A stretch of 32,896 bases of DNA from Terriglobales bacterium (GTDB lineage Bacteria; Acidobacteriota; Terriglobia; Terriglobales; Acidobacteriaceae), in the NCBI GenBank assembly GCA_015655315.1, contig JAATFH010000119.1, positions 1 to 32,896 of the forward strand, written 5' to 3'. Both the position numbers and the translations under genes were made by a program. Positions within the stretch are counted from its first letter, which is position 1, and each line of letters starts with the position of its first letter. Below, piece after piece: positions 8,501-24,842 of the stretch. The notes below the pieces were generated by a model, which saw only the letters and a list, made by a program, of their open reading frames with translations, was not told the DNA's origin and searched no databases.

Positions 8501-8598
8501 CGATACTTCACGCATGGGTCTGCGAACTGCGAAAGAACGGTTAGGGGGATTTCCGGTGGCTGAGAATCGAAAGATGTAAGCTCGCATTGACGCAACCG

Positions 8599-8722: not shown

Positions 8723-10042
8723 GTGCAGCAATACGTCGAAAAACTCATCGATCTCATCGAGCCGGATACAAACCAGATATACAACCTCACGGTAGAAGAA
8801 GCGCGGCGCCTGCTGCTCGAACAACCGGCCGACGCCATTCGCGGCGTTGAGGGATCGTTTGCCTTCATCGGGCGCTCCGGAAAGACTGTGAGGATGGCGC
8901 GCTCACTCGACCGGCCGATGCGCTATTTCCTGGCAAAACGGCAGGAAGGCCCAGTGCTGATCGTCGCCTCTCGCATTGACACCATCTATCGCTGGCTCAA
9001 GAGCGAAGGGCTTGAGGGCCAGTTCCATCCGAGCTATACACGGATGGTGCCGGCCCATCATCTCGTCGAGATTCAACTGGTAGGCTGCCCCGACCCGGAC
9101 CCTGTCTACACGCGCTTTTTCACGCCAGAACTCGGCACATTGCCTCCGGACCTTGACCGCATTGGAGAGGCATACGTCGCAGCCCTCACTGAAGAAATAT
9201 CCCAATGGCTCAGCCGCGTGCCCCTCGATGCGCCCGTTGGCGTCTGCTTTTCCGGCGGTATCGACAGTGGCAGCGTTTTTCTTGCCGCCTATCATGTCAT
9301 GCAAAAACGCGGCATGAATTTAAGCCGCCTCAAGGCCTTTGTGCTAGACCTCGGCAATGGTCCCGATGTGCAACAGGCACGCGCGTTTCTCGATGCTCTC
9401 GGTCTGGGCCTGTTTCTTGAAACCGTAGAGACGGATGCCTCGGCACTCGATGCACAGAAGACAATACGCATCGTAGAAGACTACAAGGCGCTCGATATCG
9501 AATCGGCCACGATGGCCCTGGCGCTCTGCCACGGAATCCGCGAGCGCTACCCGGATTGGCGCTACCTGTTGGATGGCGATGGCGGGGACGAAAATCTCAA
9601 AGACTACCCCATCGAGGAGAATCCTGAACTCACCATTCGCAGCGTAGTTCACAATCGGTTGCTGTACCAGGAAGGCTGGGGCGTCGGAAAGATTAAACAT
9701 TCGCTGACCTACAGTGGAGGTCTCAGCCGTTCGTACACGCGGACGTATGCTCCGGCACATCACTTTAGTTTTCTTGGCTTCAGTCCCTATACACGGCCAA
9801 ATGTCGTTGCCGTGGCCGAGGCAATTCCGTTCATCCAGTTGACGGATTACAGCGTAGAGCGGCTTTATGAGTTGAAGGGTGAGATCGTCTCGCGCGGCGT
9901 CGCAAAACTGACCGGCATGAAGATGCCCGTTTTCCCCAAGCGCCGCTTCCAGCACGGCGCGTTGCCGGAAGACACGCTGCGTCGGAAATTGCCGTTTCGT
10001 GAAGCCGAATATCGAAAGCAGTTTCTCTCGCTGTATCAGTGA
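8723..10042 (+). CDS. Asparagine-synthetase-like ATP-pyrophosphatase without catalytic glutaminase
   Basis: 439-residue AsnB-superfamily protein. The synthetase half carries the PP-loop CFSGGIDSG (175-183) and the second ATP/Mg motif LDGDGGDE (283-290, equivalent to SGxGxDE). Such enzymes adenylate a carboxylate and transfer it to an amine; AsnB, beta-lactam synthetase and lasso-peptide cyclases are relatives. The N-terminus retains only the later part of the class II glutaminase fold (GVEGSFAFIG, VASRIDTIYRWL). It has no N-terminal cysteine nucleophile, so glutamine is unlikely to be the nitrogen donor. Start is GTG 8723 with AGAGG seven bases upstream. The stop overlaps the next start by 4 bp (GTGA). 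First gene of a three-gene coupled operon with radical SAM and FAD enzymes, which suggests a dedicated tailoring or biosynthetic pathway. Substrate unknown. Confidence 0.82.
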   Translation: MQQYVEKLIDLIEPDTNQIYNLTVEEARRLLLEQPADAIRGVEGSFAFIGRSGKTVRMARSLDRPMRYFLAKRQEGPVLIVASRIDTIYRWLKSEGLEGQFHPSYTRMVPAHHLVEIQLVGCPDPDPVYTRFFTPELGTLPPDLDRIGEAYVAALTEEISQWLSRVPLDAPVGVCFSGGIDSGSVFLAAYHVMQKRGMNLSRLKAFVLDLGNGPDVQQARAFLDALGLGLFLETVETDASALDAQKTIRIVEDYKALDIESATMALALCHGIRERYPDWRYLLDGDGGDENLKDYPIEENPELTIRSVVHNRLLYQEGWGVGKIKHSLTYSGGLSRSYTRTYAPAHHFSFLGFSPYTRPNVVAVAEAIPFIQLTDYSVERLYELKGEIVSRGVAKLTGMKMPVFPKRRFQHGALPEDTLRRKLPFREAEYRKQFLSLYQ

Positions 10043-11013
10043 AGATGCCGACGTCCTTGTATCCAGCACAGACGGCAGAACGCGACAGGTGGATTCTGTC
10101 GCAACGCCCAACGCGTAACATACTCGATCCGCATCGCCCCTATGCTTTCTTTGTGGAAGAAGAATGCTCGGCGACGAGAGAAGTAGTACCGGTGGCCACG
10201 CTATTTTTGACGAACCGCGAATGCCCGTGGCGCTGCCTGATGTGCGATCTCTGGCGCAACACACTGACCGAAACCGTGCCTGCCGGAGCAATTCCCGCAC
10301 AGATCGACTATGCGCTGGCACAACTGGCACCAGCCCGGCAGATCAAGCTCTACAACAGCGGCAGCTTCTTTGACTTGAAAGCAATTCCGCCGGAAGACTA
10401 CCCCGCAATTGCGACCCAGGTTAAATCCTTTGAGCGAACGATCGTTGAAAGTCATCCGGCGCTGGTTGGAGCCGCGTGCCTGAAATTTCGTGACCTGCTG
10501 CAAGGTCAGTTAGAAGTAGCCATGGGACTGGAAACAGTTCATCCGGAGATTCTGGATCGATTGAATAAACGGATGACTCTCGATCAATTTTCCGCAGCAG
10601 CGCGATTCCTGCAGAGCAACGCAATGGACCTCCGCGTCTTCATCCTGGTCCAGCCTCCGTTCATGGAACCTGCGGAAGCACTCTACTGGGCGCAGCGCTC
10701 CCTCGACTTCGCATTTGACTGCGGAGCAACCGCCGCAACGTTGATTCCCACGCGCGGCGGCAACGGAGCGATGGACTCACTAGCGCGGCAAGGCGAGTTC
10801 ACGCCGCCTCGTCTTGAAGTACTGGAGGCCGCAGCGGAATATGGCATAGGGCTGAACAAAGGCCGCGTCTTTGCCGATCTTTGGGACGTGCCCTTAAAGC
10901 CTGATGAATGCATGGGGTGCCGCAGCCAGCGCATAGCTCATCTGCATGCAATGAATCGAAGCCAGCATATTCCGCCGCCCGTGGCATGCGTCAGCTGTGA
11001 AGGCAGCCGTTGA
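10039..11013 (+). CDS. Radical SAM enzyme with C-terminal Cys pairs
   Basis: 324-residue cytoplasmic protein. The radical SAM cluster motif CPWRCLMC gives C62-x3-C66-x2-C69. It is followed by patterns typical of the Elp3/RaSEA-like branch: the GLETVHPEILDRLNK segment, and LVQPPFMEPAEALYW. The C-terminus has two further pairs, CMGC (C291, C294) and CVSC (C317, C320), able to hold a zinc or auxiliary Fe-S site. Start is GTG 10039 overlapping the preceding stop; an ATG lies two codons on. The stop overlaps the next gene (TTGA). The closest family I can recall is the RaSEA archaeosine-type radical SAM group, but archaeosine synthesis is not expected in a bacterium and no tgt/arcS-like gene is present, so the reaction is open. 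Confidence 0.82.
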   Translation: MKMPTSLYPAQTAERDRWILSQRPTRNILDPHRPYAFFVEEECSATREVVPVATLFLTNRECPWRCLMCDLWRNTLTETVPAGAIPAQIDYALAQLAPARQIKLYNSGSFFDLKAIPPEDYPAIATQVKSFERTIVESHPALVGAACLKFRDLLQGQLEVAMGLETVHPEILDRLNKRMTLDQFSAAARFLQSNAMDLRVFILVQPPFMEPAEALYWAQRSLDFAFDCGATAATLIPTRGGNGAMDSLARQGEFTPPRLEVLEAAAEYGIGLNKGRVFADLWDVPLKPDECMGCRSQRIAHLHAMNRSQHIPPPVACVSCEGSR

Positions 11014-12560
11014 ATCGCAGATACGATATCGCTGTGGTTGGGTCGGGCTTCGCAGGCTCTCTCACGGCGATGATTGCTCACCGCCTTGGGCTTTCGGTCG
11101 TCTTACTCGAACGCGGCAAGCATCCACGCTTCATGATCGGCGAATCATCGACGCCTCTTTCCAACCTGCTTCTCGAAGACCTGGCCACTCGCTACGATTT
11201 ACCCGCCATCAAGCCTCTGTCGAAGTGGGGCACCTGGCAGCAGCATTATCCGGATATGGCGTGCGGACTTAAGCGCGGCTTTACTTTTTACCACCACACG
11301 CTCGGCCAGTCGGGCACACCAGTCCTGGACCGGAGCAGGCAGCTGCTGGTCGCCGCAAGCCCTCACGACAGAATCGCGGACACGCACTGGTATCGCGCCG
11401 ACTTCGATGCCTTTCTTGTGCAGCAAGCACAAATTTTGGGCGTCGATTACATCGATGAAGCCAGGCTGGAGAAACTCTCTGTATCCGATGGTGACGCGAC
11501 TCTGGAAGGACACAAAGGTGGCCGAAGCTTAACTGTTCGTGCGAGGTTTGTGGTAGACGCCACGGGTCCACGCGGGTTTCTGCATCGCGCGTTGCAGCTT
11601 TCTGAAACGCCGCTACCGAATTACCCTGCGACCCAGGCCCTCTACAGCCATTTTTCTGGCGTAAAGCGTCTCGGGCAGATCGAACGGCTCTCGGAAACAC
11701 CTCCGTATTCTGTCGAAGACGCGGCTGTTCACCACATCTTCGATGGTGGCTGGATATGGGTGCTGCGCTTTAACAATGGCAAGACCAGTGCCGGAGTGGC
11801 AGCACTGGATAAAACAGCCGCGGAGTTACGCTTCGCAGATGGCGAAGCTGCATGGAAACAACTTCTGGACTTGCTTCCTGCGCTCAAAGGACAGTTCGCG
11901 GAGGCTCAATCTTTGCGCCCATTCGAGCACGCGCAAAAACTATCTTTTCTGAGCGGCGCGGTTTGTGGAGATCGCTGGGCATTGCTTCCATCAGCGGCGG
12001 GGTTCGTCGATCCGCTGCTCTCGACTGGATTTCCGTTGACGCTGCTGGGTATCAACAGACTGGCCACTATTCTGGAGCATGACTGGGACTCGCCACGTTT
12101 CCATGCGAGTCTGCAGCAATATGCGGTCCAGACATTGGACGAGCTGCACGCAACATCGCGCCTGATCGCAGGACTTTATGCGAACATGAATCGTTTCCCA
12201 GTCTTCTCTGCGCTCGCCCTGCTTTACTTTGCCGCAGCCAGTTTTTCGGAGACAGCCCGGAGGCTAAAGAAACCGCACCTTGCACCATCATTTCTTCTGC
12301 ACGATCACCCGGCCTTCGGTCCGGCGTGCCGGAATTTGCTGGAGCGCGCTCAGCACGCAAAATCAGAGCATGATTCAGAAATCCTGATTGCCGACGTTCT
12401 GCGCGTAATTGAACTGCTGGACGTGGCTGGTCTTTGCAGGCAGGACCGGCATCACTGGTACCCCGTCGACGCGGAAGACCTGTTCCGCTCTGCCTCGAAA
12501 GTGGCGGCCACTCACGAAGAGATTGCACAGCTTCTGCAAAGCAGCGGCTTTTATCCTTAG
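11010..12560 (+). CDS. FAD-dependent oxidoreductase, tryptophan-halogenase-like fold
   Basis: 516-residue flavoprotein. The dinucleotide-binding motif VVGSGFAGS (9-17) and acidic residue E34 mark the FAD site. FMIGESSTP (41-49) matches the IGES region of flavin-dependent halogenases and related monooxygenases. FVDPLLSTGFP (about 332) is the usual C-terminal FAD motif of this group. The halogenase signature W-x-W-x-I-P is only partly kept: GWIWVLRF (about 247) has W-x-W but not I-P, so halogenation is doubtful and a monooxygenase or dehydrogenase role is equally possible. TTG 11010 overlaps the preceding stop (TTGA), so translation is probably coupled. Third and last gene of the operon; only 2 bp separate its stop from the convergent CRTAC1 gene. 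Confidence 0.8.
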   Translation: MNRRYDIAVVGSGFAGSLTAMIAHRLGLSVVLLERGKHPRFMIGESSTPLSNLLLEDLATRYDLPAIKPLSKWGTWQQHYPDMACGLKRGFTFYHHTLGQSGTPVLDRSRQLLVAASPHDRIADTHWYRADFDAFLVQQAQILGVDYIDEARLEKLSVSDGDATLEGHKGGRSLTVRARFVVDATGPRGFLHRALQLSETPLPNYPATQALYSHFSGVKRLGQIERLSETPPYSVEDAAVHHIFDGGWIWVLRFNNGKTSAGVAALDKTAAELRFADGEAAWKQLLDLLPALKGQFAEAQSLRPFEHAQKLSFLSGAVCGDRWALLPSAAGFVDPLLSTGFPLTLLGINRLATILEHDWDSPRFHASLQQYAVQTLDELHATSRLIAGLYANMNRFPVFSALALLYFAAASFSETARRLKKPHLAPSFLLHDHPAFGPACRNLLERAQHAKSEHDSEILIADVLRVIELLDVAGLCRQDRHHWYPVDAEDLFRSASKVAATHEEIAQLLQSSGFYP

Positions 12561-12562
12561 CT

Positions 12563-14383
12563 CTACGGGTGCGTCTGCGGCTTGGAAAACACGATTGGCT
12601 GTTCGGAGATCATGCCCTTACCCTCTTCAAGGGTAATGAACTGATCTGGCTTGATATTCGCGACTGATTCTTTTCTGCCGCTCGGCCAGACAACTTCAAG
12701 GCTTACGTTCTTATCCCCGTCGGGTTTCCCTAACCCGAAAGTGAGCGGCAATTCGCTCTGCGAAAGATAGCTCGAACCATCTTTCACCATGCCGAAAAGC
12801 CGCAGACCTTTATTCGTTTTCAGCGTAATCTTCGTACCGATTCCATCGCGATTCGACCGCGTACCAATCGTCTTCACGCGCAGCACATCGTTTTGGTTTC
12901 CGTTGTCATTGCGCAGCAGTTTCGCAGAACCGTTGTTGATGGTCATCACCAGGTCCAGATCGCCGTCGTTGTCGTAGTCCAGATACGCCGCGCCGCGCCC
13001 CACAACGGGTTGACGCAATGCCGAACCAACCTTGTCCGTCACATCTTCAAATTTTCCATTGCCCCTGTTATGGAAAAGCAGTGGCGGCTGTGCGTAGTGA
13101 ATGGTCGGAGTCACAACGCTTACATCGTCGGCGACATGACCGTTGACGGCAAATATATCCGGCAATCCATCAAGATCGTAATCGAAGAAAAATGTACTGA
13201 AGGTAAGCGAACTGGCAGATGCTGGACCGATCCCATCGGTCATTGCCTTGTCCGTAAACAAACCCGAGCCATCGTTCTTGTAGAGCGCCATGCTCTCATT
13301 CGCGAAGTTCCCAATCACCAGGCTTTGATGGCCCGACAGGTCGTAATCCGCGGCATCCGCGCCCATGCCAGCGCGCGCCTTACCCGCATCACTGAAGGCT
13401 ACGCCTGTGGCAAATGCTTCATCGGTGAATGTGCCGTTACCTTTATTGTGATAGAGCTTGTTCGGCTGCGTATCGTTGGCAACAAACAGGTCCAGCCAGC
13501 CATCGTTGTCATAGTCGAGCAGGACAATACCCAGCGACTTGCTGGACGGATCATAGAGCCCAGCCTTCTTCGTTACATCTTCAAACGTGCCGTTGCCATT
13601 GTTGTGATACAGCGTCGCGCTCTGGCCTTTGTATAACTCTGGCGTGCAATAGGATTTGTGTTTGCCGTCAAGGGTGCAGTATTGATCGGTGGCCGGCGAC
13701 CACTCCACATAATGCGAGACAAACAGATCGAGCTTGCCATCGTTGTCATAGTCGAACCACACCGCGCCGGTTGAAAAGCCAGGATCGCGCACTCCGGCTT
13801 TGGCAGTCACGTCGGTGAACTTTCCGTCGCCTAGATTGCGAAAGAGATGGTTGCCATCGAGCGCCGTAATATAAATATCGTCGAAGCCATCGTTATCGTA
13901 GTCCGCAGTAGCACAACCAAGGCCATACATTTCTACTGTCAGCTCTGCCTGTCCCGTCACATTCGTGAACGTGCCATCCTGGTTATTGTGATACAGACCG
14001 GGGAACGATTTGCCGTTCATATGACCAGGCCATGCCATGGAATTGACAAAGAGAATGTCCTGCCATCCGTCATTGTCATAGTCGAGAACGCATACGCCGC
14101 TGCCCATCGTCTCCGGCAGATATTTTTTCCCGAAGGCGCCGCTGTTATGCCGGAAGTGGATGCCCGCCTGCGCCGTCGCATCCGTAAAGCGGATAGGACC
14201 GGATGGTCGCGCAGAAGCAATCTCTGCACTCGTATTTGTTTCCGGCGTCACCGTCTCGGCTGGACGGCTGACACTGGTGGGCTTCTCCTGGGTAGACGGA
14301 GTTGAGGGTGTCCCTTTACAGCCAGGAATCAACAAGACGCCTATCAGTGGCAAAAAGCGGACAATCGGCAAGGGCGACAGCAT
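12563..14383 (-). CDS. CRTAC1-type FG-GAP / ASPIC-UnbV lipoprotein
   Basis: 606-residue exported protein. The N-terminus is a short hydrophobic signal ending in a lipobox-like IPGC (C about 22) followed by a Ser/Thr/Pro-rich linker, so it is probably lipid-anchored. The body is a seven-bladed-type FG-GAP propeller; at least six calcium-loop motifs are seen (DYDNDGWQD, DYDNDGFDD, DYDNDGKLD, DYDNDGWLD, DYDLDGLPD, DYDNDGDLD). The C-terminus is a clear ASPIC/UnbV domain (SNRDGIGTKI, DGSSYLSQSE, LTFGLGKPDG, VVWPSGRKES). ATG 14383 is chosen for its AAGGA; ATG 14416 is the alternative and would give a longer n-region. Last gene of the minus-strand operon, 40 bp after the RnfD-like gene. Molecular role unknown; domains suggest ligand or surface binding. 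Confidence 0.88.
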   Translation of the reverse strand: MLSPLPIVRFLPLIGVLLIPGCKGTPSTPSTQEKPTSVSRPAETVTPETNTSAEIASARPSGPIRFTDATAQAGIHFRHNSGAFGKKYLPETMGSGVCVLDYDNDGWQDILFVNSMAWPGHMNGKSFPGLYHNNQDGTFTNVTGQAELTVEMYGLGCATADYDNDGFDDIYITALDGNHLFRNLGDGKFTDVTAKAGVRDPGFSTGAVWFDYDNDGKLDLFVSHYVEWSPATDQYCTLDGKHKSYCTPELYKGQSATLYHNNGNGTFEDVTKKAGLYDPSSKSLGIVLLDYDNDGWLDLFVANDTQPNKLYHNKGNGTFTDEAFATGVAFSDAGKARAGMGADAADYDLSGHQSLVIGNFANESMALYKNDGSGLFTDKAMTDGIGPASASSLTFSTFFFDYDLDGLPDIFAVNGHVADDVSVVTPTIHYAQPPLLFHNRGNGKFEDVTDKVGSALRQPVVGRGAAYLDYDNDGDLDLVMTINNGSAKLLRNDNGNQNDVLRVKTIGTRSNRDGIGTKITLKTNKGLRLFGMVKDGSSYLSQSELPLTFGLGKPDGDKNVSLEVVWPSGRKESVANIKPDQFITLEEGKGMISEQPIVFSKPQTHP

Positions 14384-14423
14384 GAATCGGGTTTCCTTTT
14401 CTATCTTCGCATCCATACCGCAG

Positions 14424-15281
14424 CTATGCTGGCGCGGGAGCATTCACATCTGAGCGGCGCGCATTCATCCACATCTCAAGGAGCAACGCAATCGGCCCGA
14501 CCATGAAGAGTGCATAAAGAGGAGCATAGATGCTCTGATCCAGTCGCAGAAAAAACTCGACAACCGCCACGAAGAAAACAACAATGCATTGCCCCAGCTT
14601 CGAGCGAACCGTCGTTTTTGGATCGGTGATCATGAAGAAGATGAAGAGTTGATATTCCGGGCCGGTGATCGGAGAAATTTCGGACTGCCAGGGATCGCCC
14701 GTTATCCACGCGCGTAAAAAGGCCAGCGCGATGAACGAGGCAACATACACAGCACAGATGTGAAAGCGACGAAGACGCCAGATGATTGCGGTGCCCAGCG
14801 CCCAGATCACAATCATCGCCCCCAGGTTGTTGCCCCATTGAATGCTCAGGCTGGCCACGGCTTCCGATGCCAGGAAGAGCATCACACAAATGCCGAAGTT
14901 CGACGGGTTCCAGATATGGCGGCCCTTAACGCGCAACACATATTTAGAGGTAATCGAGAGCAGGCTGCACAGCGCATATGGCCAGAAGGCAGGCGAACGC
15001 AGCAGAATGCCAACGCTGATACCTGTGATGTAAGCACTCGCAAGATGCGGCCACTTGTGAAGAAAGATACGGCTCAGCACCAGTTCCGCAAGGATGCTGG
15101 TGCCGATGGCCAGCAGCGTCTTCTGATAGCTCTCCAGAATGCCGAACGTGAAATGCCCCACCAGCAGAATGAGCGTAATAAAAACCGGAGGAACGAAGCG
15201 GTTATCCAAGCTGAGAAACTGCTTCCATTGGGCCGTCTGCTGTGTTGGCGGCGTGGGCGTCGTTGTGGCTGGCTGGCTCAT
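14424..15281 (-). CDS. RnfD/NqrB-like integral membrane protein
   Basis: 285-residue polytopic membrane protein with about eight to ten hydrophobic segments. It resembles the RnfD/NqrB family: SAYITGISVGILL, GRHIWNPSNFG (120-130) and FFMITDPKTT (215-224) are the family's conserved regions. RnfD and NqrB carry covalent FMN on a threonine of an S-G-A-T motif; that motif is not visible here, the nearest being SPITGPE (203-209), so flavinylation by ApbE is uncertain. No other rnf or nqr subunit is in the window, so it is a stand-alone subunit. It is embedded between two ASPIC/UnbV genes: ATG 15281 overlaps the upstream stop (ATGA) and has GAGGAG at good spacing. This suggests a membrane redox or anchoring role for the exported propeller proteins. 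Confidence 0.8.
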   Translation of the reverse strand: MSQPATTTPTPPTQQTAQWKQFLSLDNRFVPPVFITLILLVGHFTFGILESYQKTLLAIGTSILAELVLSRIFLHKWPHLASAYITGISVGILLRSPAFWPYALCSLLSITSKYVLRVKGRHIWNPSNFGICVMLFLASEAVASLSIQWGNNLGAMIVIWALGTAIIWRLRRFHICAVYVASFIALAFLRAWITGDPWQSEISPITGPEYQLFIFFMITDPKTTVRSKLGQCIVVFFVAVVEFFLRLDQSIYAPLYALFMVGPIALLLEMWMNARRSDVNAPAPA

Positions 15282-17074
15282 GCGGGCTCCTCAATCTTAT
15301 AGAGTTTGCCCGGCGCAAGACTATTCAGCGTCTGCACTTTTCCCGAAGGCCAGCGGATGATCACTTTCTCAATCTGCGGATTTTTGCCCAGCCCAAAATG
15401 CAGGCGCCGGTCATTCTGCGCCGCAAAGCCGCATCCGCCGGAGACCTGCTGAATCTGCTGCTGGCCATTCCAGAACAAAGCCACCTGTGCGCCAATCGCG
15501 CTGCGATTGCTTTTCGTTCCTTCCAGAGCAAACTCAATCCAATTGTTCTCCGGCGCGACCGTGTTTTTGTAGAGCAGCAGAGGACCCCGCTGATTGGCGA
15601 CCACTACATCCAGCACGCCGCGGTTCCATAAATCGGCAAGCGCAACGGCGCGTCCATCATGCGTGTCCGCAACTCCGACTGCCTGGGCCACATCGACAAA
15701 TTTGCCCGCGCCATCGTTGAGCCACACGTGCTTTTGCTGATACCCCGACAGGCTACGTCCATCCATCCCCGGCCAGTCTTTGGCGTCTCCGATAATCGAT
15801 GAATTGCCGCCGGCAACCTTGGAAAAGTCGTACCAGTAATTTCGTTTGCGATCCAGAGAGACGTAGCCGTTCGTCAAAAAAAGATCGAGCGTTCCATCGT
15901 TATTCAAATCGCCAAACTGAGCACCGAAGCTCCATCCGCCAAGCTCGACACCCATATCGCGCGCAAGGTTCTCAAACTTGATGTCATTACCAGATGTGCC
16001 TTCTTTGGGAACCCATAAATTATTTCCCTGGATCAGCACTCCGTCTTCCGAGATGTTCGATACATACACGGAGTATCGTCCCTGATTGAAGATGTCACCG
16101 AAGGCTACATTCATGCCGCTCTTGGGAGCGAAGCCCACGCCGGTCTGCTCACCCGCGTCATGGAACCGTTTACCGTCATTGAGGTACAACTCAGAAACGC
16201 CATAGTCGTTGGCGATAAACAGATCGGGGTGCCCGGTGCCACGCAGGTCAGCGGCAGCAGCAGCCAAAGCCCATCGCCTGCTGACGATCCCCATCTTCGC
16301 GCTGACCTCTTCAAATTTCCCGTTGCCCAAGTTGTGGAAGAGATATTTTCGCCCACCGTTCTTGGCGTATTCGAAGCTCTCGGGCATCATCCGTGTCGAC
16401 TTCAAATGCCACAGGTCAACGTCTTCCGGATAGTAGCCGCCAACAAAAAGATCAAGCAGTCCGTCACCGTCGTAATCGAACCAGACAGCGGTATTTGCAT
16501 TGATCCACGGCGGCAGCTCTGCCTGTTCGCTCACGCGGGTAAAGCCGTGTCCCTGATCGTTGTGAAACAGCTCAGGGCGGCCCCATTTGATCAGAAACAA
16601 ATCTTCATAGCCATCATTGTCATAGTCGCCCCAGACTGCTCCCATGGAGACGCCGGTCCCGATCTGGTTGACATCGGCAAGACCCATTTCCTCTGACACA
16701 TCTTTAAAAGTGCCGTCATGCTGGTTTCGATAAAGATGATTCCTGCTGCCCTCCCCGCTGTTCGTCACGTAGATGTCGGGCCAGCCATCGCGATCGAAAT
16801 CGACGATAGATACCGATGCTCCCATCGACGCAACTTCCGGCATGATGTGCGCAAGCTTCGGGTCAAGCGTAGGTCCCTGGTGAACAAAATCGATTCCTGA
16901 AGCGTGGGCAACTTCTTCAAGATGGAAGCCATGCCTCGCCACTGCAGAACTGATATCCAGCGTCGTTGCGGACGCCTTGCGTGCAGACGACACGCGCTTC
17001 ACGACGATCGGAGTCAGCAGGAGGCCTACAAAAAATACAATCAGCAAAATTCGTGCAATGGGTACGCGCTTCAT
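15278..17074 (-). CDS. Membrane-anchored CRTAC1-type FG-GAP / ASPIC-UnbV protein
   Basis: 598-residue exported protein. A basic start and hydrophobic stretch (KRVPIARILLIVFFVGLLLT) without a clear cleavage site suggests an uncleaved N-terminal anchor. Then follow FG-GAP propeller repeats with loops DFDRDGWPD, DYDNDGYED, DYDGDGLLD and DLNNDGTLD, separated by a blade-like segment mentioning LRGTGHPDLFIANDYG. A C-terminal ASPIC/UnbV domain covers about 520-598 (SNRSAIGAQV, GGCGFAAQND, LHFGLGKN, IRWPSGKV). ATG 17074 overlaps the upstream gene's stop by 4 bp, and its own stop overlaps the RnfD-like start in the same way. Second gene of the operon. Function unknown. Confidence 0.86.
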   Translation of the reverse strand: MKRVPIARILLIVFFVGLLLTPIVVKRVSSARKASATTLDISSAVARHGFHLEEVAHASGIDFVHQGPTLDPKLAHIMPEVASMGASVSIVDFDRDGWPDIYVTNSGEGSRNHLYRNQHDGTFKDVSEEMGLADVNQIGTGVSMGAVWGDYDNDGYEDLFLIKWGRPELFHNDQGHGFTRVSEQAELPPWINANTAVWFDYDGDGLLDLFVGGYYPEDVDLWHLKSTRMMPESFEYAKNGGRKYLFHNLGNGKFEEVSAKMGIVSRRWALAAAAADLRGTGHPDLFIANDYGVSELYLNDGKRFHDAGEQTGVGFAPKSGMNVAFGDIFNQGRYSVYVSNISEDGVLIQGNNLWVPKEGTSGNDIKFENLARDMGVELGGWSFGAQFGDLNNDGTLDLFLTNGYVSLDRKRNYWYDFSKVAGGNSSIIGDAKDWPGMDGRSLSGYQQKHVWLNDGAGKFVDVAQAVGVADTHDGRAVALADLWNRGVLDVVVANQRGPLLLYKNTVAPENNWIEFALEGTKSNRSAIGAQVALFWNGQQQIQQVSGGCGFAAQNDRRLHFGLGKNPQIEKVIIRWPSGKVQTLNSLAPGKLYKIEEPA

Positions 17075-20000
17075 TTTCCAGCATTACTCCTCAAGGCGTT
17101 GTTAAAAATATCCGCCGTCACATAGCGCGTCTGATACGTCTGCCAATCCGTGGTGTGGTTTCGGTACACCCAATCATCGTTCAGCTTACCCGGGGGCGTA
17201 TCGTATACCGTTCGAGCATGATAGGGATAAGGCAATACAGTCTGCGAATACGTGGAGTTGTAGTCGCCATCTTTGATCCAGCCATCACCGGCAATCACAT
17301 AGTCCCGTACCCAGTCTGCTGGCGGCGGTGCCGGAGCAGCAAAGCGAAGCGCCAACTCATCGCCCGCATTCATGATGACATAGCGGTCATCGATACCAGA
17401 CAGCAGCGGACGCACATCTCCAAAGCGAGTGTAGTAGCCCGCCAGATCGCGCCATATCTGGGTCGTTGCCAGCAGGTGGTTGTAATCGGGGATTTCCGGA
17501 GAAGAAGCATTGGCCTGATGAATGACAGAGTAGCCCCGGTAATGCAAGTCGGCTTCACTGGGAGCTAGCCGCGTGATTTTCAGTGTCGTATCGGGCAGCC
17601 CCTTTGCCCACTCCATCGAGTCCCAATACACTTCGAGGCTCGTACGCAGACGCACCTTGCGCGGAGTTCCGGGAACAAAAACATTCGTCAGATCGATGAG
17701 GCATGTTTTATTACGGCCCGCAGGGAAGCCGAGATTCGGTTTCGCCACCTTCCAGCCGCCGTGTCCATCCGGAACCTCAAGACTCAACGGACGCGGCAAC
17801 TCATGCTGCCCCTGGCTCATCGCGATGTTGATCGAAGAGTCGGACGGATGCAGCCAGCCGCGCGCAACCAGCCACAATGGTCCACTCGTTGGCGCATCTT
17901 TTCCCAGGTCAACCTCAACATAGTGATCGCGAGTCACGCCCTGATATTGTCCGCGCCCAAAGGTATCCAGATATTTGCCGTCAAGCGACCGCAGTGTCTC
18001 AGTCACGTCGCGCCCATTGTCGTCCATCGCGCCTGCAATCGGCTGCGGAGGAGCCACTGCCGTCACCGCGAGCTTTACTGCAGGCACGGCATAGCGCTCG
18101 TCAGTGAATATCTCAGTTCCTGCCGGATGATCGACCGTCATCAGCGCCAGGTAGTCGTAGTAATAGGTCTCCCACAACTCGCCGGTGATGCGCAGATCGT
18201 AAAAGCCGTCACGCGGAACAAGCTGGTCGCGCCCGATCTTGTACCACTCCTGCGTAGCCTGAATGCGCGCCGGACCGAGCGAGTTGATGCGCAGGCCGAT
18301 GGCCGATCCCCACGGCACTGTATCCTTCACGAACTCCATTCCCTTGCCGTTGTAGGCGAAAAGGAACGGGCACGAACCCTTCAACCTCTGCTCCGTCACA
18401 ATCTGCTGATCGGCCTTAAGAGCAAACTCCGCGCGCACCGAGCCATTCGGCCAAACGATACGGGCTACATCTACTTCGGTTTGTTCCCCAAGACCGAAGT
18501 GCAGTTCCGGACTCGTAATCGGCTGCTTCTGCACCAGCAGCCCTGAGCGAATCTCGATATCTCCTCCGATACCGAAGGAGTTAATGCGCTGGTCGCCTGT
18601 GGCCTGGCGTGCGCGAGGCCGAATGATCTGCCAGTGATAATTTTTCGTCCCGCGATTGACCAACTCGACGGCTTGACCATCGGTAGCAATTCCTAATAGA
18701 TCGAGCCGCCCAGTCCCCAGAAAATCGGCCGCATCGAAAACCGAACCCATATCTGCAGGTTTGGACATCGACACGAATTTGGTCTGCGCGTCCTGAAGCC
18801 AGATAGCCGCTCCCTGCCCGCCACTCACCTGAGCCAGCAGCAGATCGAAAGCACCGTTGTTGTCGAGGTCGCCGACACGCAGACGAACATCATGTGTAAA
18901 GAAATTTCCGGCATCGGGCACGTTCGCAATCGTCGCTGTCGTCCATCCTCCGCCATCGCTTATTTCGGATAGCGTCACAATACTGCCATCTCCGCGAACT
19001 GCAATCAGGCCGAGCGAGCCATTTTCATTCACATCTGCGACAGCAATCGCTTTCACGCCTGAGAAGCCAGCGAGGACTGCCTGCTCGTGAAACTTGCCCG
19101 AACGATCGTTGATGAAAACATGAAGCTGATTGGAGCCATCGATGAATGCCGCATCCGGATTACCATCGCCGTTCAGATCGGCCCACACAAACTGCTGGAT
19201 ACCGGAGACCCCGGTAAAAACCTGCATCGACTGAAACGTGCCGTCGCCATTGTTCCGCAAAACAAAAGGCGACCCGTGCTTTGCGCTGACAACAATATCG
19301 AGATCGCCGTCGGCTTCGATGTCCGCTGCCCATGCCCCTGTACAAGCACTGTCTACGATGGATCGAGGCAGCTTCGTCTGCGCGGTTACATCGGTAAAAG
19401 CATCCGGCTTGTCCTGCCTTAGAAAGCGGAGGCCACCCGCACCGGCCAGAACAATATCTGTCTTGAAGTCGTAATTGAAATCGATGGGCAAGATCCCTTC
19501 CGGCGACGGCGCAAGATTCGCAGAGCCGCCCGGAAACGGAAAAGTGGCTCCCGTATTCAAGTGCACTTCGCGCGCATTCGCGACCGCGACAGCCGGTGCA
19601 CCCGAGCCATTGAGCGATATGGGTCCGATCCAACCCCACTTTCCTGCAGGCAGGTTCGCAACAGGCTGAGGCGCAAACGTTATCGCCGTATCGGGAGAAG
19701 CAGGTTTAAACACCGGCGAGGCCAGACGCAGAAAATGCGTAAAAGGGATGGCCTCTTCTCCCGGTTGTGGTTTGATCTCCGATAAACTGGCGCGAAACTC
19801 CGGCACCTGCATCAGCACATTCCGCAGAAAGATCGATCTCGTTGCCGCTGCTCTTGGTTCCGGCCCGGCAGCAGTAGCCTGCAAAGTTGCGAGCTGCTGT
19901 TTTACATCGGATGGCCATGTGCCGGACTGAGCCGCAATCCTGGCCACGGTGGAGCGCAACGTCTCCGCATCGCCACGCTTCGCGGCAATCCTGCTCAGTT

Positions 20001-20601
20001 CCAGCAGTGCGGCAAGATTATTGGGCTGCGCCGCCAGAATCTGCTCCATGAGCTTCTGAAAATCTGCATCGCTGTTCGCATCACCCTGACGCTCGACTTC
20101 CGATGCAAGCTGGTAAATTGCCCGCAAATTAGCCGGGTTCAGTTCGATTGCCTGGCGCAGATCGGTGATTGCCTTGGGCGAGTTGCCGCGATTGCTTTCC
20201 AACAGCCCCAACAGGTAGTAGATCCGGTCATTCTTCGGCGCGAGTTCGCGCGCCCGGTCCAACCGCTGCCCCGCCGTGTCAAAACTACGTTGGCGCAGGG
20301 CCAGAATGCCCCAGTTGGCCCAACCCGCCGGCTCACCGGGAACGATCTGCGTCGCTTTCCCCAGATTGCTTTCCGCGCGCACATCATCGCCAACCTGCAG
20401 CGCAGCCAGGCCGACGTAAAACGTGGAAACGAAATCGGCATACGTCTTGGAAGCAGGATCGGGCAAGCGGGCAGCAGAATGACACCCCCCAGCGAGGCAG
20501 GCCAGCAGAGCTAAAATGCAGACAAAGAGTCTTCCCTGGAAGAGATTGATTCTGAAGGTATGGTTGTTCAGAGCCCGGTCATTTCGTATCCGAATTCTCA
20601 T
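17071..20601 (-). CDS. TPR / FG-GAP / ASPIC-UnbV lipoprotein with large C-terminal module
   Basis: 1176-residue protein with an export signal ending near CLAGGC, probably a lipoprotein. Residues about 50-240 contain TPR-like repeats (GWANWGILALRQ, YYLLGLLESNRG, RAIYQLASEVERQ). A looser FG-GAP region follows (DFNYDFKTD, DIEADGDLD, DLNGDGNPD, DLDNNGAFD), with degenerate calcium loops, then an ASPIC-like segment (NSFGIGGDIEIRSG, LHFGLGEQ, IVWPNGS). From about 742 to the end it matches the module of the 5081-8500 protein: SCPFLFAYNGKGMEFV, DHPAGTEIFTDERY, MDDNGRDVTETL, LGFPAGRNKT, EVYWDSMEWAKG, HYRGYSV, YTRFGDVRPLL. ATG 20601 gives a normal signal n-region; ATG 20634 is also possible and neither has a good SD. 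First gene of the four-gene operon. Confidence 0.83.
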   Translation of the reverse strand: MRIRIRNDRALNNHTFRINLFQGRLFVCILALLACLAGGCHSAARLPDPASKTYADFVSTFYVGLAALQVGDDVRAESNLGKATQIVPGEPAGWANWGILALRQRSFDTAGQRLDRARELAPKNDRIYYLLGLLESNRGNSPKAITDLRQAIELNPANLRAIYQLASEVERQGDANSDADFQKLMEQILAAQPNNLAALLELSRIAAKRGDAETLRSTVARIAAQSGTWPSDVKQQLATLQATAAGPEPRAAATRSIFLRNVLMQVPEFRASLSEIKPQPGEEAIPFTHFLRLASPVFKPASPDTAITFAPQPVANLPAGKWGWIGPISLNGSGAPAVAVANAREVHLNTGATFPFPGGSANLAPSPEGILPIDFNYDFKTDIVLAGAGGLRFLRQDKPDAFTDVTAQTKLPRSIVDSACTGAWAADIEADGDLDIVVSAKHGSPFVLRNNGDGTFQSMQVFTGVSGIQQFVWADLNGDGNPDAAFIDGSNQLHVFINDRSGKFHEQAVLAGFSGVKAIAVADVNENGSLGLIAVRGDGSIVTLSEISDGGGWTTATIANVPDAGNFFTHDVRLRVGDLDNNGAFDLLLAQVSGGQGAAIWLQDAQTKFVSMSKPADMGSVFDAADFLGTGRLDLLGIATDGQAVELVNRGTKNYHWQIIRPRARQATGDQRINSFGIGGDIEIRSGLLVQKQPITSPELHFGLGEQTEVDVARIVWPNGSVRAEFALKADQQIVTEQRLKGSCPFLFAYNGKGMEFVKDTVPWGSAIGLRINSLGPARIQATQEWYKIGRDQLVPRDGFYDLRITGELWETYYYDYLALMTVDHPAGTEIFTDERYAVPAVKLAVTAVAPPQPIAGAMDDNGRDVTETLRSLDGKYLDTFGRGQYQGVTRDHYVEVDLGKDAPTSGPLWLVARGWLHPSDSSINIAMSQGQHELPRPLSLEVPDGHGGWKVAKPNLGFPAGRNKTCLIDLTNVFVPGTPRKVRLRTSLEVYWDSMEWAKGLPDTTLKITRLAPSEADLHYRGYSVIHQANASSPEIPDYNHLLATTQIWRDLAGYYTRFGDVRPLLSGIDDRYVIMNAGDELALRFAAPAPPPADWVRDYVIAGDGWIKDGDYNSTYSQTVLPYPYHARTVYDTPPGKLNDDWVYRNHTTDWQTYQTRYVTADIFNNALRSNAGK

Positions 20602-20772
20602 GCAATCTACTATTTTGGAGGTTCTCCTAGACATATAGCAATGGAATCCGGAGACAGAAGACGATCACTCACTCATCACTCTTCCGAAAACCATTCGCAT
20701 GCACGAGAAAAAGCAATTCCTGGGCATTATCGACATAGAAGCGCAAGCGAAAGTATTTATTTCAGCAAAGAA

Positions 20773-21037: not shown

Positions 21038-21808
21038 GTGAGAGGGATTACGAATATTGGCGTCCGCCTTCGTCCATTTGCATTGATCGCAATCCTGCTC
21101 ATTCTCTGGGAGATCGCGGCCCGCAGGCAGTCCGCGCATCTTCTGCCGGGACCGTGGGGAGTCGTTCACGGCATCGCCGATCTCGCGCAGCACGGATTGC
21201 TCGTGAAATATATCGTTGCCTCGTTGTTTCGAGTGACGTGGGGATTTCTTCTGGCTGCAATCCTGGCAATACCGCTCGGGCTGACAATTGGCTGGTATCG
21301 CCGGGCCGAGATGGCCTTGAATCCCATCCTCCAGGTTCTCCGGCCTATTTCCCCGCTTGCGTGGATACCGATCGCCATTCTCTGGTTTGGCGTGGGCGAC
21401 CTTGCAGCCATCTTTCTCATTTTTCTTGGATCGTTTCTTCCCTTATTACTGACCGCTATCAACGCGGCTCGCAGCGTTCCGGCAGTGTACGTCAATGCAG
21501 GCCGCAACTTCGGCCTCGGACCTGTGCGCCTTGTTTACCAGGTTTTTTATCCGGCGGTGGTTCCACAATTGATTGTCGGCCTTCGGATCACGCTTGGCGT
21601 CGCCTGGCTTGTCGTAGTAGCCGCAGAGATGATCGCGGTAAACTCCGGCCTTGGCTTTCTGATCATAGACGCGCGCAACGCCGGCAACCGCTATGACCTT
21701 GTGGTCGCTGGTATGGTCATCATAGGCGTTATCGGCTTACTGCTCGATATGGGAATGCGCTCACTCGAGAAGGTGCGTTCATTCCGCTGGGGATATTCGG
21801 AGGACTAG
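21038..21808 (+). CDS. ABC transporter permease, SsuC/TauC/NrtB type (first of two)
   Basis: 256-residue inner-membrane protein with about six transmembrane segments of the BPD_transp_1 type used by nitrate, sulfonate, taurine and related importers. The cytoplasmic EAA-like loop that contacts the ATPase is visible as AINAARSVPAVYVNAGRNFG. Other family text: LRPISPLAWIPIAILWFGVG and VVAAEMIAVNSGLGFLI. It is closely similar along its length to the second permease at 22593-23375, so the two probably form a heterodimeric pore. The GTG start lacks a strong SD and follows a potential RNA structure. First gene of a five-gene operon; two bases separate its stop from the ATPase start. Confidence 0.9.
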   Translation: MRGITNIGVRLRPFALIAILLILWEIAARRQSAHLLPGPWGVVHGIADLAQHGLLVKYIVASLFRVTWGFLLAAILAIPLGLTIGWYRRAEMALNPILQVLRPISPLAWIPIAILWFGVGDLAAIFLIFLGSFLPLLLTAINAARSVPAVYVNAGRNFGLGPVRLVYQVFYPAVVPQLIVGLRITLGVAWLVVVAAEMIAVNSGLGFLIIDARNAGNRYDLVVAGMVIIGVIGLLLDMGMRSLEKVRSFRWGYSED

Positions 21809-21810
21809 GC

Positions 21811-22596
21811 GTGTCAGTCGCTGAAGCTGTGCTGGCTTCCTCATTAAAAACAAAGCTCCGCGTCGACCATGTCAGCATGGTCTTCAAACGCGGTGGCAAG
21901 AGTACGCCTGTCCTTGAAGACATCAACCTCGAGGTAAAAGACGGCGAGTTCGTCTGCCTGCTGGGTCCTTCGGGATGCGGCAAGACAACACTACTGAATG
22001 CCATGGGCGGGTTCCTGTCGCCCACAAGCGGAGAAATACGCGCAGACGCAGAGATCGTTCATGGACCGGATCCCCGACGCATCTTTGTATTTCAGGAAAG
22101 AGGAGTTTTCCCCTGGCTCACGGTCGAAGGCAATATCGGCTTCGGCTTATTCAAGCTGCCACGCGCAGAGAAAGAGAAACGAATCGCCTACTACATCAAA
22201 ATGGTTGGCCTCGAGGGATTTGAAAAGGCTTACCCGCCGGAGCTTTCAGGCGGTATGAAGCAGCGACTTGAAGTCGCCCGCGCGTTGGCCGTCAATCCGG
22301 ATATGCTCTTCCTCGACGAACCGTTCGGCGCACTGGATTCCATCACGCGCCTGGTCATGCGCGGTGAACTTCTTCGCATCTGGGAAACCGAGCGCAAGAC
22401 GATCATCTTCGTCACGCACGATATCGATGAGGCGGTGCAGCTCGCAGACCGTGTAGTGGTGATGAGCGCGCGTCCGGCAACAATCCGGCAGATAGTAAAC
22501 ATCGATATACCGCATCCGCGCGATATCAGCTCCGCACGCTATCTGGAGTTGCGCGATAGTATTTTCAAGCAGATTGGTCTGGCGCAAAAAAAATGA
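21811..22596 (+). CDS. ABC transporter ATP-binding protein, SsuB/TauB/NrtD type
   Basis: 261-residue cytoplasmic ATPase that powers the importer. Walker A GPSGCGKTT is at 52-60, Q-loop FQERGVFPWLTV is consistent with the nitrate/sulfonate/taurine group, signature LSGGMKQ starts at 145, Walker B MLFLDEP at 165-171, and the D-loop and H-loop (THDIDEAVQLAD) are intact. The GTG start at 21811 has GGAGGA at good spacing within the end of the preceding gene. The stop overlaps the ATG of the second permease (ATGA), after a run of eight A residues. Substrate cannot be inferred from the ATPase. Confidence 0.93.
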   Translation: MSVAEAVLASSLKTKLRVDHVSMVFKRGGKSTPVLEDINLEVKDGEFVCLLGPSGCGKTTLLNAMGGFLSPTSGEIRADAEIVHGPDPRRIFVFQERGVFPWLTVEGNIGFGLFKLPRAEKEKRIAYYIKMVGLEGFEKAYPPELSGGMKQRLEVARALAVNPDMLFLDEPFGALDSITRLVMRGELLRIWETERKTIIFVTHDIDEAVQLADRVVVMSARPATIRQIVNIDIPHPRDISSARYLELRDSIFKQIGLAQKK

Positions 22597-23375
22597 ACTC
22601 GCTTGCAGAGCCACGAAAATGGGAAAAGCTGTTCTGGCCCATCCTTGCGTCCGCGCTGCTGCTGGCGTTATGGCACTGCTCGGTCGTCTGGACGGCCACG
22701 AAGATCTTCCCGTCCCCGCGCGATGTAGAACGAGGACTGGCGGAGTTGCTGCGGCACCATGTCCTGTGGAACGATATCGGCGACTCTCTGCGCCGTGTTT
22801 CCGTTGGCTTTGGAACAGCGGCGCTCATCGGCATCCCTCTTGGGCTGGTGCTCGGCTGGTATCCCGCGGCAAACCAGGTCGTGAATCCAGTGATGCAGAT
22901 ATTGCGGCCTATCAGCCCGATCGCATGGATTCCCATCGCCATCATCCTATTCGGCGTTGGCGACAGAGCTGCGATGTTCCTGATCTTTCTCGGCGCCTTC
23001 TTCCCCATCGTCGTCGCCTGCATCAACGGCGTCTCGAATGTGCCCTCGGTTTTTCGCCGTGCCGGACGCAACTTCGGCCTCACGCCCGTTCAACTTCTGG
23101 CAAAGGTCGTCTTCCCCGCCGCTCTTCCTCAGATTCTCGTCGGCTTGCGCATCGCACTTGGCATCGCATGGCTGGTGGTCGTCGCAGCGGAAATGATTGC
23201 GGTCGATTCCGGCCTGGGTTATCTTGTCATCGATTCGCGCAATTCCGGCAAGAGGTATGACCTCGTGGTTGCCGCCATTCTTCTCATCGGCGTAATCGGC
23301 CTCCTGCTCGATTTCGGTTTTCGCCGCCTGGAGAAGTTGCGGTCCGTTCGCTGGGGGTTCCGTAATGAGTCTTAG
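22593..23375 (+). CDS. ABC transporter permease, SsuC/TauC/NrtB type (second of two)
   Basis: 260-residue membrane permease paralogous to the first one: LRPISPIAWIPIAIILFGVGD, the EAA-like loop CINGVSNVPSVFRRAGRNFG and VVVAAEMIAVDSGLGYLVID align almost word for word. About six transmembrane segments. Most SsuABC/NrtBCD-type importers have one permease gene and use a homodimer, so a tandem pair interrupted by the ATPase gene is noteworthy. It overlaps the ATPase gene by 4 bp at its start and the binding-protein gene by 11 bp at its end, indicating strong translational coupling. Confidence 0.9.
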   Translation: MNSLAEPRKWEKLFWPILASALLLALWHCSVVWTATKIFPSPRDVERGLAELLRHHVLWNDIGDSLRRVSVGFGTAALIGIPLGLVLGWYPAANQVVNPVMQILRPISPIAWIPIAIILFGVGDRAAMFLIFLGAFFPIVVACINGVSNVPSVFRRAGRNFGLTPVQLLAKVVFPAALPQILVGLRIALGIAWLVVVAAEMIAVDSGLGYLVIDSRNSGKRYDLVVAAILLIGVIGLLLDFGFRRLEKLRSVRWGFRNES

Positions 23376-24423
23376 AAACAAAGTTCTATTCGTCATGGGG
23401 GGATGGCTGGTGCTGATCACAGCGCTCCATGGTTATCTGAATGTCAATTGGGGAGCCGTCCTGAACGATTTCCGTCCGCCCGCGAAGCGCAAAGTCGTCG
23501 TCGCGTACGTCCCAGTCACCTGCCAGCTCACTTGTCCCGTAACGGATTACATCTCCAAGTTTTCAGAAAACGGCGAGATTTTTCTGCCTCGCTTGTTTCA
23601 GGGCTTTCCCGAGATTAAGGAAGCTCTGATTTCCAACAAAGTGCAAGCCGCGTTCATCGTTGCTCCGCTGGCCATCGCCCTCGTATCGCAGGATGTGCCC
23701 ATTAAAGTTGTCTACCTCGGTCACCGTTACGGCAGCGCCCTGGTCGTAAGCAAAAATGGCCCGGTAAAAAAATTCTCCGACCTGCGTGGCCGCACGGTCG
23801 CCATCCCCAGCCGCTTCTCCGACGAGCGCCTCATCCTCTTTCGCGCGATGAAGGTCTGGGGCATGAAGCCCGGAGATATCAAAATGGTCGAGATGGCGCC
23901 ACCGGATGTCTCCGGGGCCCTCGCCGCCGGTGCCATCGATGGCTTTGTCATGGGAGAGCCTTTTCCCTCGCAGGCGGAGATGGGAGGCTTTGGCCGCGTT
24001 CTTTTCCAGGCGCGCGATTACTGGCCGGATTACATGTCGTGCATTCTCGTCGTGCGGCAGGACCTGATCGATACAAGACCCGAAACCGTGCAGGTTCTGG
24101 TCGACGGCATCGCCCGGTCCGGTCTGTGGCTGGATAAAGGAAAACCCTACCGCGAAGATGCCGCCGACTTTGTCGGCCGCTACTACTACAACCAGAAACC
24201 GGCGCTGCTGCGATGGGCGCTTACCAAGCCTCTGGACAGAGTCGTCTATAGCCATCTCTCTCCGCGCCAAGCTGATTTCGACATGGTGCGCGACCTGATG
24301 ATGGAAACGGGCGTTCTCGACAAGAAGCTTGATTTTTCCGCCTACACGGATACGCGCTTCTCAGATAGAGCCAGTATCCAGACCGCATGGAAGTATGAGC
24401 CTGGCATTGCAACTGCCAAATAG
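23365..24423 (+). CDS. ABC transporter substrate-binding protein, NrtA/SsuA-like, with Cys pair
   Basis: 352-residue protein with an N-terminal hydrophobic segment (about 7-28) that exports or anchors it, and the two-lobed NMT1/SsuA-type binding fold. Family text includes FQGFPEIKEALISNKVQAAF, LRGRTVAIPSRFSDE, the substrate-facing AAGAIDGFVMGEPFPSQAEM and FSDRASIQTAWKYEPG near the end. Near the mature N-terminus is VTCQLTCPVTDY (C53, C57), and another Cys occurs in YMSCILVV. In this fold the first strand's loop often lines the ligand pocket, so the cysteines could contact a metal or thiol-reactive ligand; that is inference. Fourth gene of the transporter operon. Confidence 0.85.
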   Translation: MSLRNKVLFVMGGWLVLITALHGYLNVNWGAVLNDFRPPAKRKVVVAYVPVTCQLTCPVTDYISKFSENGEIFLPRLFQGFPEIKEALISNKVQAAFIVAPLAIALVSQDVPIKVVYLGHRYGSALVVSKNGPVKKFSDLRGRTVAIPSRFSDERLILFRAMKVWGMKPGDIKMVEMAPPDVSGALAAGAIDGFVMGEPFPSQAEMGGFGRVLFQARDYWPDYMSCILVVRQDLIDTRPETVQVLVDGIARSGLWLDKGKPYREDAADFVGRYYYNQKPALLRWALTKPLDRVVYSHLSPRQADFDMVRDLMMETGVLDKKLDFSAYTDTRFSDRASIQTAWKYEPGIATAK

Positions 24424-24805: not shown

Positions 24806-24820
24806 AGTGGTCATACCACT
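24806..24820. promoter_or_regulatory. FadR-type (GntR family) operator palindrome upstream of uxaE
   Basis: A perfect palindrome with 6-bp arms (AGTGGT / ACCACT) around a 3-bp centre CAT. The core TGGTCATACCA fits the TGGT-N3-ACCA consensus of FadR-subfamily GntR repressors, which includes the hexuronate regulators UxuR and ExuR. It lies 23 bp before the chosen uxaE start. The regulator gene itself is not in this window. Confidence 0.55.
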
Positions 24821-24842
24821 TGAAGTCGGGGAGCATGGACCA

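What the first reader, a model, noticed from the sequence alone, without database searches (positions are those of the whole stretch)
12563..20601. Coupled operon of three exported ASPIC/FG-GAP proteins built around a solitary RnfD-like membrane protein
Four minus-strand genes are joined by ATGA overlaps (17071-17074, 15278-15281) or a 40-bp gap. Three encode exported or anchored beta-propeller proteins ending in ASPIC/UnbV-type segments and the third gene encodes an RnfD/NqrB-like subunit with no other Rnf/Nqr genes in the window. Tight coupling implies one machine: a membrane redox or anchor protein with surface propellers. The molecular function of ASPIC/UnbV domains is, to my knowledge, unestablished.
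Basis: partly seen in the sequence, partly recalled or inferred. Interest (0 to 1): 0.68.

Follow-up and report, generated by a model that had tools for sequence, protein, structure and literature searches.

The report
UnbV–UnbU operon outside enediyne clusters
A tightly coupled pair of genes, known mainly as two unexplained parts of the machinery that makes enediyne antitumour antibiotics, turns out to sit in a widespread bacterial operon with no enediyne genes, which gives a second and independent way to find out what these proteins do.

Summary
The four genes and their overlaps are real. The surprise lies in what they are. B (15278-17074) is the genome's UnbV: enediyne UnbV hits it at 148 bits, the next of about 19 ASPIC places at 52. 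B's family and enediyne UnbV form one clade (98/99). C (14424-15281) has the RnfD/NqrB fold; its profile matches enediyne UnbU (E 4e-16) better than E. coli RsxD (2e-5). So B-C is the UnbV-UnbU (E3-E4) pair, whose exact roles were called 'still uncertain' in 2024. No UnbL/DUF1702 or enediyne PKS was found near it. The pair is conserved: B lies directly upstream of C in 75 of 80 loci from at least eight phyla by record title, and both occur in the same 14 of 247 Acidobacteriota genomes, neighbouring in all. A is usually the third member; D is a mostly acidobacterial extra. Recurrent neighbours are an AsnS-like/radical-SAM/FAD-monooxygenase triad and a sulfonate-type ABC importer. C lacks the covalent-FMN loop of RnfD/NqrB but keeps three of four riboflavin contacts. 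Best guess: a one-flavin membrane electron conduit serving a periplasmic calcium-type propeller. Conservation is shown; mechanism and product are inferred.

The parts
17071..20634 (-). Gene A: exported lipoprotein with TPR repeats, FG-GAP propeller, short ASPIC segment and a conserved 437-aa C-terminal region (start may be 20601)
   Evidence: ORF; Pfam; upstream of B in 60 of 80 loci
17074..18384 (-). C-terminal region of A, strongly conserved; confident beta-rich model with a galactose-binding-like (CBM32/F5-8C type) segment at residues 108-266 of the region
   Evidence: Alignment A5, model pLDDT 92, best Z 9.7 over about 125 residues, weak
15278..17074 (-). Gene B: membrane-anchored CRTAC1/UnbV-type propeller with ASPIC domain; the genome's counterpart of enediyne UnbV (E3)
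   Evidence: Best hit of enediyne UnbV in the genome; clade with enediyne UnbV 98/99; shared insert absent from the other ASPIC proteins tested; match to CRTAC1 9etn
17071..17074 (-). ATGA stop/start overlap of A and B
   Evidence: ORF coordinates
15278..15281 (-). ATGA stop/start overlap of B and C; an in-frame ATGA or GTGA overlap recurs in 55 of 80 loci
14424..15281 (-). Gene C: RnfD/NqrB-fold membrane protein, UnbU-like (E4), no covalent-FMN loop, T86/N125/D220 of the riboflavin pocket kept
12563..14443 (-). Gene D: second CRTAC1-type lipoprotein (likely start 14386); optional member found mostly in acidobacterial loci, not of the UnbV clade
11010..12560 (+). Associated: FAD monooxygenase/halogenase-like protein, convergent with D
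   Evidence: PF04820, QhpG/CmlS-like below cut-offs; recurrent neighbour
10039..11013 (+). Associated: radical SAM protein, RaSEA-like (TIGR01210 below cut-off)
8723..10042 (+). Associated: asparagine-synthetase-like ATP-dependent ligase with a PP-loop
   Evidence: co-occurrence with C
5081..8587 (-). Associated: second TPR/FG-GAP/ASPIC protein, paralogue of A
21038..24423 (+). Associated: ABC importer (two permeases, ATPase, SsuA/NMT1-type binding protein), divergent from A

Best explanation
The core is an UnbV-UnbU pair (B-C, usually led by A) working outside any enediyne cluster. C is an inner-membrane protein of the RnfD/NqrB fold that has lost the covalent-FMN loop and probably holds one non-covalent flavin (or a quinone). 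I propose that C passes electrons between the membrane or cytoplasm and the periplasmic propeller B, which is anchored beside it and carries calcium-type DxDxDG blades and the ASPIC domain; A and D are further lipoprotein propellers that scaffold or bind substrate. Together they would do a redox step on a small molecule or exported product, often one linked to the AsnS/radical-SAM/FAD triad and the ABC importer encoded alongside. Shown: identity of B and C, conservation, gene coupling, predicted fold, loss of the FMN loop, retention of three pocket residues. Inferred: flavin binding, electron flow, B-C contact, substrate.
For: UnbU relatives by tblastn, with UnbV-UnbU adjacent in the same order in annotated enediyne cassettes. 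Enediyne UnbV picks B at 147.7 bits against 52 for the next place. B family + UnbV clade 98/99, excluding D and ten own paralogues, with a shared insert (W414, N424, W434-P435). C profile against UnbU E 4e-16, RsxD 2e-5. B directly upstream of C in 75 of 80 loci, 55 with in-frame A/GTGA overlap. Same 14 of 247 genomes for B and C, adjacent in all. Model of C matches RnfD/NqrB at Z 20-22, the next fold at 11. NqrB riboflavin contacts Thr162, Asn203 and Asp346 (PMC9325719, PMC10643135) align with T86, N125 and D220; Asn200 aligns with H122; no SGAT/SQAT motif in any UnbU-like row. No ApbE found in six of seven C-bearing genomes. A membrane protein with ferredoxin-like cysteine motifs is encoded near A in 11 of 80 loci.
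Against: No cofactor, product or interaction has been tested. The relation of C's clade to enediyne UnbU is unresolved in the tree. The pocket residues are shared by the wider PF03116 family, including solitary members without ASPIC, so they do not prove flavin binding. The AsnS gene is absent from 5 of 14 C-bearing genomes and present in 19 without C, so a joint pathway is only a statistical link that ignores shared ancestry.
Confidence: 0.5

Rival explanations
1. C is not a redox protein but a channel or carrier: the RnfD/NqrB fold resembles urea transporters and Amt channels, and with the covalent-FMN loop gone C could move a small molecule across the inner membrane and hand it to B, a periplasmic acceptor. 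In enediyne clusters UnbU-UnbV would then export or position an intermediate.
For: Second-best fold matches of C are urea transporters and Amt/Rh proteins at Z about 11; covalent-FMN motif missing; an importer is often encoded nearby.
Against: Sequence and fold are clearly closer to RnfD/NqrB (Z 20-22); N125 and D220 stay invariant across 47 relatives and in the UnbU-like rows examined.
Confidence: 0.2
2. The unit is a surface adhesion or polysaccharide-binding complex: three propeller lipoproteins with a galactose-binding-like domain, C being a membrane anchor without chemistry.
For: FG-GAP propellers; galactose-binding/CBM-like segment in A (weak); glycoside hydrolases GH31 and GH92 and nucleotide-sugar enzymes at the window's edges.
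Against: Sugar enzymes are not among the recurrent neighbours; B groups with UnbV of a biosynthetic cassette rather than with other ASPIC paralogues; C keeps buried polar residues that a mere anchor would not need.
Confidence: 0.1
3. A-B-C and the AsnS/radical-SAM/FAD triad together form a biosynthetic cluster for an unknown small molecule, with UnbV-UnbU doing the same kind of step as in enediyne cassettes. This can be true together with the best explanation; it adds the claim of one shared product.
For: Triad beside A-B-C in different arrangements in Acidobacteriota, Planctomycetota, Armatimonadota and Bacteroidota; AsnS in 9 of 14 C-bearing against 19 of 233 other genomes; ten-gene co-directional locus in L095.
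Against: Triad and A-B-C each occur without the other; substrate classes of the triad unknown. The link of the enediyne cassette to iodinated polyyne intermediates rests on my knowledge of Gui et al. 2024, of which only the reference could be seen here.
Confidence: 0.35
4. Shared ancestry only: the operon is stable, but B and C have diverged from enediyne UnbV-UnbU to an unrelated role, so nothing learned here would carry over to enediynes.
For: C's clade and enediyne UnbU are separate, each 100/100, at about 27% identity, and their relation is unresolved.
Against: Strict co-occurrence and adjacency of B with C, the B-UnbV specific shared insert and the same loss of the FMN loop.
Confidence: 0.2

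Closest known systems
Enediyne PKS cassette E3/E4/E5/E/E10 (UnbV, UnbU, UnbL/DUF1702, PKSE, thioesterase)
   Same: B corresponds to E3/UnbV and C to E4/UnbU, adjacent, same order, often overlapping
   Different: No DUF1702 found in the own genome and six other C-bearing genomes nor in any of 80 loci; no convincing PKSE in the 80 loci; extra genes A, D, triad, ABC importer
RnfD / NqrB subunits of the Rnf and Na+-NQR complexes
   Same: Same predicted fold (Z 20-22); NP and TDP motifs; three of four riboflavin-contact residues
   Different: Covalent-FMN loop missing; no RnfA/E-type partner subunits found in seven C-bearing genomes; partners are propellers, not NqrC/RnfG
CRTAC1 (cartilage acidic protein 1) and other ASPIC/FG-GAP proteins
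   Same: FG-GAP propeller plus ASPIC; B matches solved CRTAC1 9etn, E 1e-16
   Different: B belongs to the UnbV branch with its own insert; membrane-anchored and coupled to C
Solitary RnfD-like proteins without ASPIC (e.g. Metabacillus plasmid, with a redoxin gene)
   Same: Same family, no covalent-FMN motif
   Different: No UnbV partner seen in their neighbourhoods

Membership tests
Enediyne PKS cassette | UnbV (E3) directly upstream of UnbU (E4) | tested here: met
Enediyne PKS cassette | UnbL/DUF1702 (E5) | tested here: not met
   Not found in the own draft genome or six C-bearing relatives; positive control G291 rings; 0 of 80 loci
Enediyne PKS cassette | Enediyne PKS (E) beside the pair | tested here: not met
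   None among the window's proteins; none in 80 loci except one partial 183-residue similarity in L050
UnbV family | Groups with enediyne UnbV apart from other ASPIC proteins | tested here: met
   Clade 98/99, best genome hit, shared insert
UnbU family | Groups with enediyne UnbU apart from other RnfD-like proteins | tested here: inconclusive
   Own clade 100/100 beside UnbU 100/100; order of the deep branches unresolved; profile match E 4e-16
Rnf/Na+-NQR complex | RnfD/NqrB fold | tested here: met
   Z 20-22 on a pLDDT 80 model
Rnf/Na+-NQR complex | Covalent FMN threonine (SGAT/SQAT) in the D/B subunit | tested here: not met
   Absent from C and all UnbU-like rows, present in RsxD and NqrB
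Rnf/Na+-NQR complex | RnfA/E (NqrD/E) partner subunits in the genome | tested here: not met
   0 of 7 C-bearing genomes, four controls ring; own genome only 77.5% complete but the six others are 99-100%
Rnf/Na+-NQR complex | Riboflavin bound in the D/B subunit | tested here: inconclusive
   T86, N125, D220 align with NqrB Thr162, Asn203, Asp346; H122 replaces Asn200; binding itself not testable here
CRTAC1/ASPIC proteins | FG-GAP propeller plus ASPIC domain | tested here: met

The most novel reading that the evidence does not exclude
UnbV-UnbU is an ancient, general periplasmic redox enzyme pair (a one-flavin membrane protein driving an ASPIC propeller) that enediyne clusters borrowed, so that the ASPIC/UnbV domain, present also in animal CRTAC1, is a catalytic or redox-partner domain, and the A-B-C + triad loci make an unknown class of product in many phyla.
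Probability: 0.25. Interest if true: 0.85.

Novelty: new variant of a known kind. Interest (0 to 1): 0.62.

Why it matters
E3, E4 and E5 belong to a cassette described as indispensable for the enediyne skeleton, yet their exact roles were called 'still uncertain' in 2024 (PMC11069151). Finding the E3-E4 pair as a self-contained, strongly coupled operon away from enediyne genes separates it from the polyketide synthase and gives a simpler system in which to test it, culturable Acidobacteriota among others. It also offers a concrete hypothesis for the ASPIC/UnbV domain: partner of a stripped-down RnfD/NqrB-type flavoprotein.

Tried and rejected
Rnf/Nqr remnant: rejected as a complex, since no partner subunits were found and the covalent-FMN loop is missing. 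Covalent flavinylation by ApbE: unlikely, no ApbE found in six of seven C-bearing genomes. Enediyne cluster in this genome: no DUF1702 found and no enediyne PKS near the pair. Chance clustering of abundant ASPIC genes: rejected by exact co-occurrence and adjacency. AsnS triad as an obligatory part: rejected, since it also stands alone; its other neighbours (DNA polymerase delta', thymidylate kinase, tyrosyl-tRNA synthetase, sensor kinases) gave no clue to its substrate. A sequence search of the PDB with C alone found nothing; a diverse profile found RnfD. Literature: no held open-access paper contains both UnbU and UnbV; Gui et al. 2024 is not held.

Full report
WHAT IS THERE. Four minus-strand genes occupy 12563-20634. 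A (17071-20634) has TPR repeats, FG-GAP blades and a partial ASPIC match; B (15278-17074) and D (12563-14443) are FG-GAP + ASPIC proteins; C (14424-15281) belongs to PF03116, NQR2_RnfD_RnfE. A/B and B/C share ATGA overlaps. D's first ATG lies inside C, but the ATG at 14386 begins a normal lipoprotein signal and leaves 37 bp. In A the ASPIC segment is followed by 437 conserved residues, so it is not terminal. The draft genome (5.3 Mb, 77.5% complete) has about 19 ASPIC places but only one PF03116 protein, C.

B AND C ARE THE UNBV-UNBU PAIR. A tblastn search of plasmids with C found proteins annotated 'enediyne biosynthesis protein UnbU' (27-28% identity, E 2e-7). Their records show DUF1702 - UnbV (CRTAC1/VCBS) - UnbU - PKS - thioesterase, UnbV directly before UnbU, overlapping in the S. 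clavuligerus record. The profile of C matches UnbU with E 4e-16 and E. coli RsxD with 2e-5. Independently, enediyne UnbV searched against the whole genome picks B at 147.7 bits; the next place scores 52. In a tree of ASPIC proteins, B's family and enediyne UnbV form one clade (98/99) without D or ten other ASPIC proteins of the genome, and share an insert (W414, N424, W434-P435) that the other ASPIC proteins tested lack. In the tree of C the window's clade and enediyne UnbU are each 100/100, but how they relate is unresolved.

CONSERVATION. Among 61 relatives a close relative of C occurs in 7 (two more matches are remote), and all 7 show A, B, C and D in this order (B of L021, hidden by an opposite-strand ORF, confirmed; D of L020 runs off the contig). 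A scan of genome contigs gave 546 relatives, of which the best 80 were kept. B lies directly upstream of C in 75, A-B-C in 60, D after C in 34; an in-frame ATGA or GTGA overlap of B and C occurs in 55. Of the five exceptions L066 and L079 start near a contig end, in L094 the C ORF runs into B, and in L086 and L108 B lies upstream but 1-2 kb away. By record titles the loci come from Acidobacteriota, Planctomycetota, Bacteroidota, Balneolota, Rhodothermota, Armatimonadota, Latescibacterota and Gemmatimonadota (some MAG labels may be wrong). In 247 Acidobacteriota genomes the near relatives of C and of B occur in exactly the same 14 and are neighbours in all. More distant C relatives (22-34%) fall into other kinds: true enediyne cassettes, ApbE-associated genes, and solitary ones without ASPIC. 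P-values treat genomes as independent, which they are not.

NEIGHBOURS. Clustering of all neighbours in the 80 loci leaves few recurrent families: an FAD monooxygenase/halogenase-like protein (26 loci), an AsnS-like ligase (25), a radical SAM protein (20) and an ABC importer (16), all present in the window. They take different arrangements, from convergent (window) to one co-directional run A-B-C-ABC-AsnS-rSAM-FAD-D in L095. AsnS is in 9 of 14 C-bearing genomes and 19 of 233 others; in the latter the triad mostly stands without UnbV-UnbU, so it is a separate module that often travels with A-B-C. A membrane protein with ferredoxin-like cysteine motifs (my reading of its sequence) is encoded near A in 11 of 80 loci.

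HOW IT MAY WORK. The model of C (pLDDT 80) matches RnfD and NqrB at Z 20-22 over about 250 residues; urea transporters and Amt channels follow at 11. In NqrB, riboflavin is held by Thr162, Asn200, Asn203 and Asp346 (PMC9325719, PMC10643135). With a Vibrio NqrB as bridge these align with T86, H122, N125 and D220 of C, while the loop with the covalent-FMN threonine is missing from C and from every UnbU-like protein examined. ApbE, which attaches FMN covalently, was not found in six of seven C-bearing genomes, and no RnfA/E-type subunit in any of the seven. I infer a one-flavin (or quinone) membrane protein passing electrons to or from the anchored propeller B in the periplasm. B's blades keep the DxDxDG calcium-type motifs and it matches solved CRTAC1. 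The role of A is unclear; its C-terminal region gives a confident beta-rich model with a galactose-binding-like segment (best Z 9.7, weak). Substrate and direction of electron flow are unknown.

COMPARISON AND NOVELTY. The pair is known from the enediyne cassette, called indispensable for the skeleton while the exact roles of E3/E4/E5 were 'still uncertain' (PMC11069151; cassette definition PMC5181780). What appears new is the widespread operon away from enediyne genes and its neighbours; I found no held open-access paper that describes it, but many subscription papers are not held. It is therefore a new variant of a known kind: the same pair without DUF1702 and the PKS. It should not be called an enediyne cluster nor an Rnf/Nqr complex.

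Noticed in passing
L142 (G291), L140 (G193), L146 (G189): Enediyne-type cassettes in Acidobacteriota: UnbV, UnbU and PKS in all three, DUF1702 seen in L142 and L140; G291 is in the window's own family.
   Followed up: partly
L029 (Serratia proteamaculans plasmid) and L032 (Sinorhizobium meliloti pSymA): UnbU relatives outside actinomycetes: Serratia has DUF1702, UnbV and UnbU beside ketosynthases and a glycosyltransferase; the Sinorhizobium stretch has matches to DUF1702 and enediyne PKS.
   Followed up: partly
window 8723-12560; L149-L159: AsnS-like / RaSEA-like radical SAM / FAD monooxygenase triad is a conserved operon of its own in many Acidobacteriota, substrate unknown.
   Followed up: partly
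L087 1497-3011 and ten other loci: Membrane protein with ferredoxin-like cysteine motifs, in part with YtkA-like and short exported proteins, encoded near A in some lineages.
   Followed up: partly
L129-L139, L141; L028: A further class of solitary RnfD-like proteins (about 30% identical to C) without ASPIC partners, once next to a redoxin gene.
   Followed up: partly
window 5081-8587: A fifth ASPIC protein, paralogue of A over its length (27%), divergent from the AsnS gene; conserved there in G002 and G020.
   Followed up: partly
window 24807-31235 and 1230-3541: UxaE-like epimerase, GH31 and GH92 glycosidases, and nucleotide-sugar epimerase genes at the window's edges.
   Followed up: no
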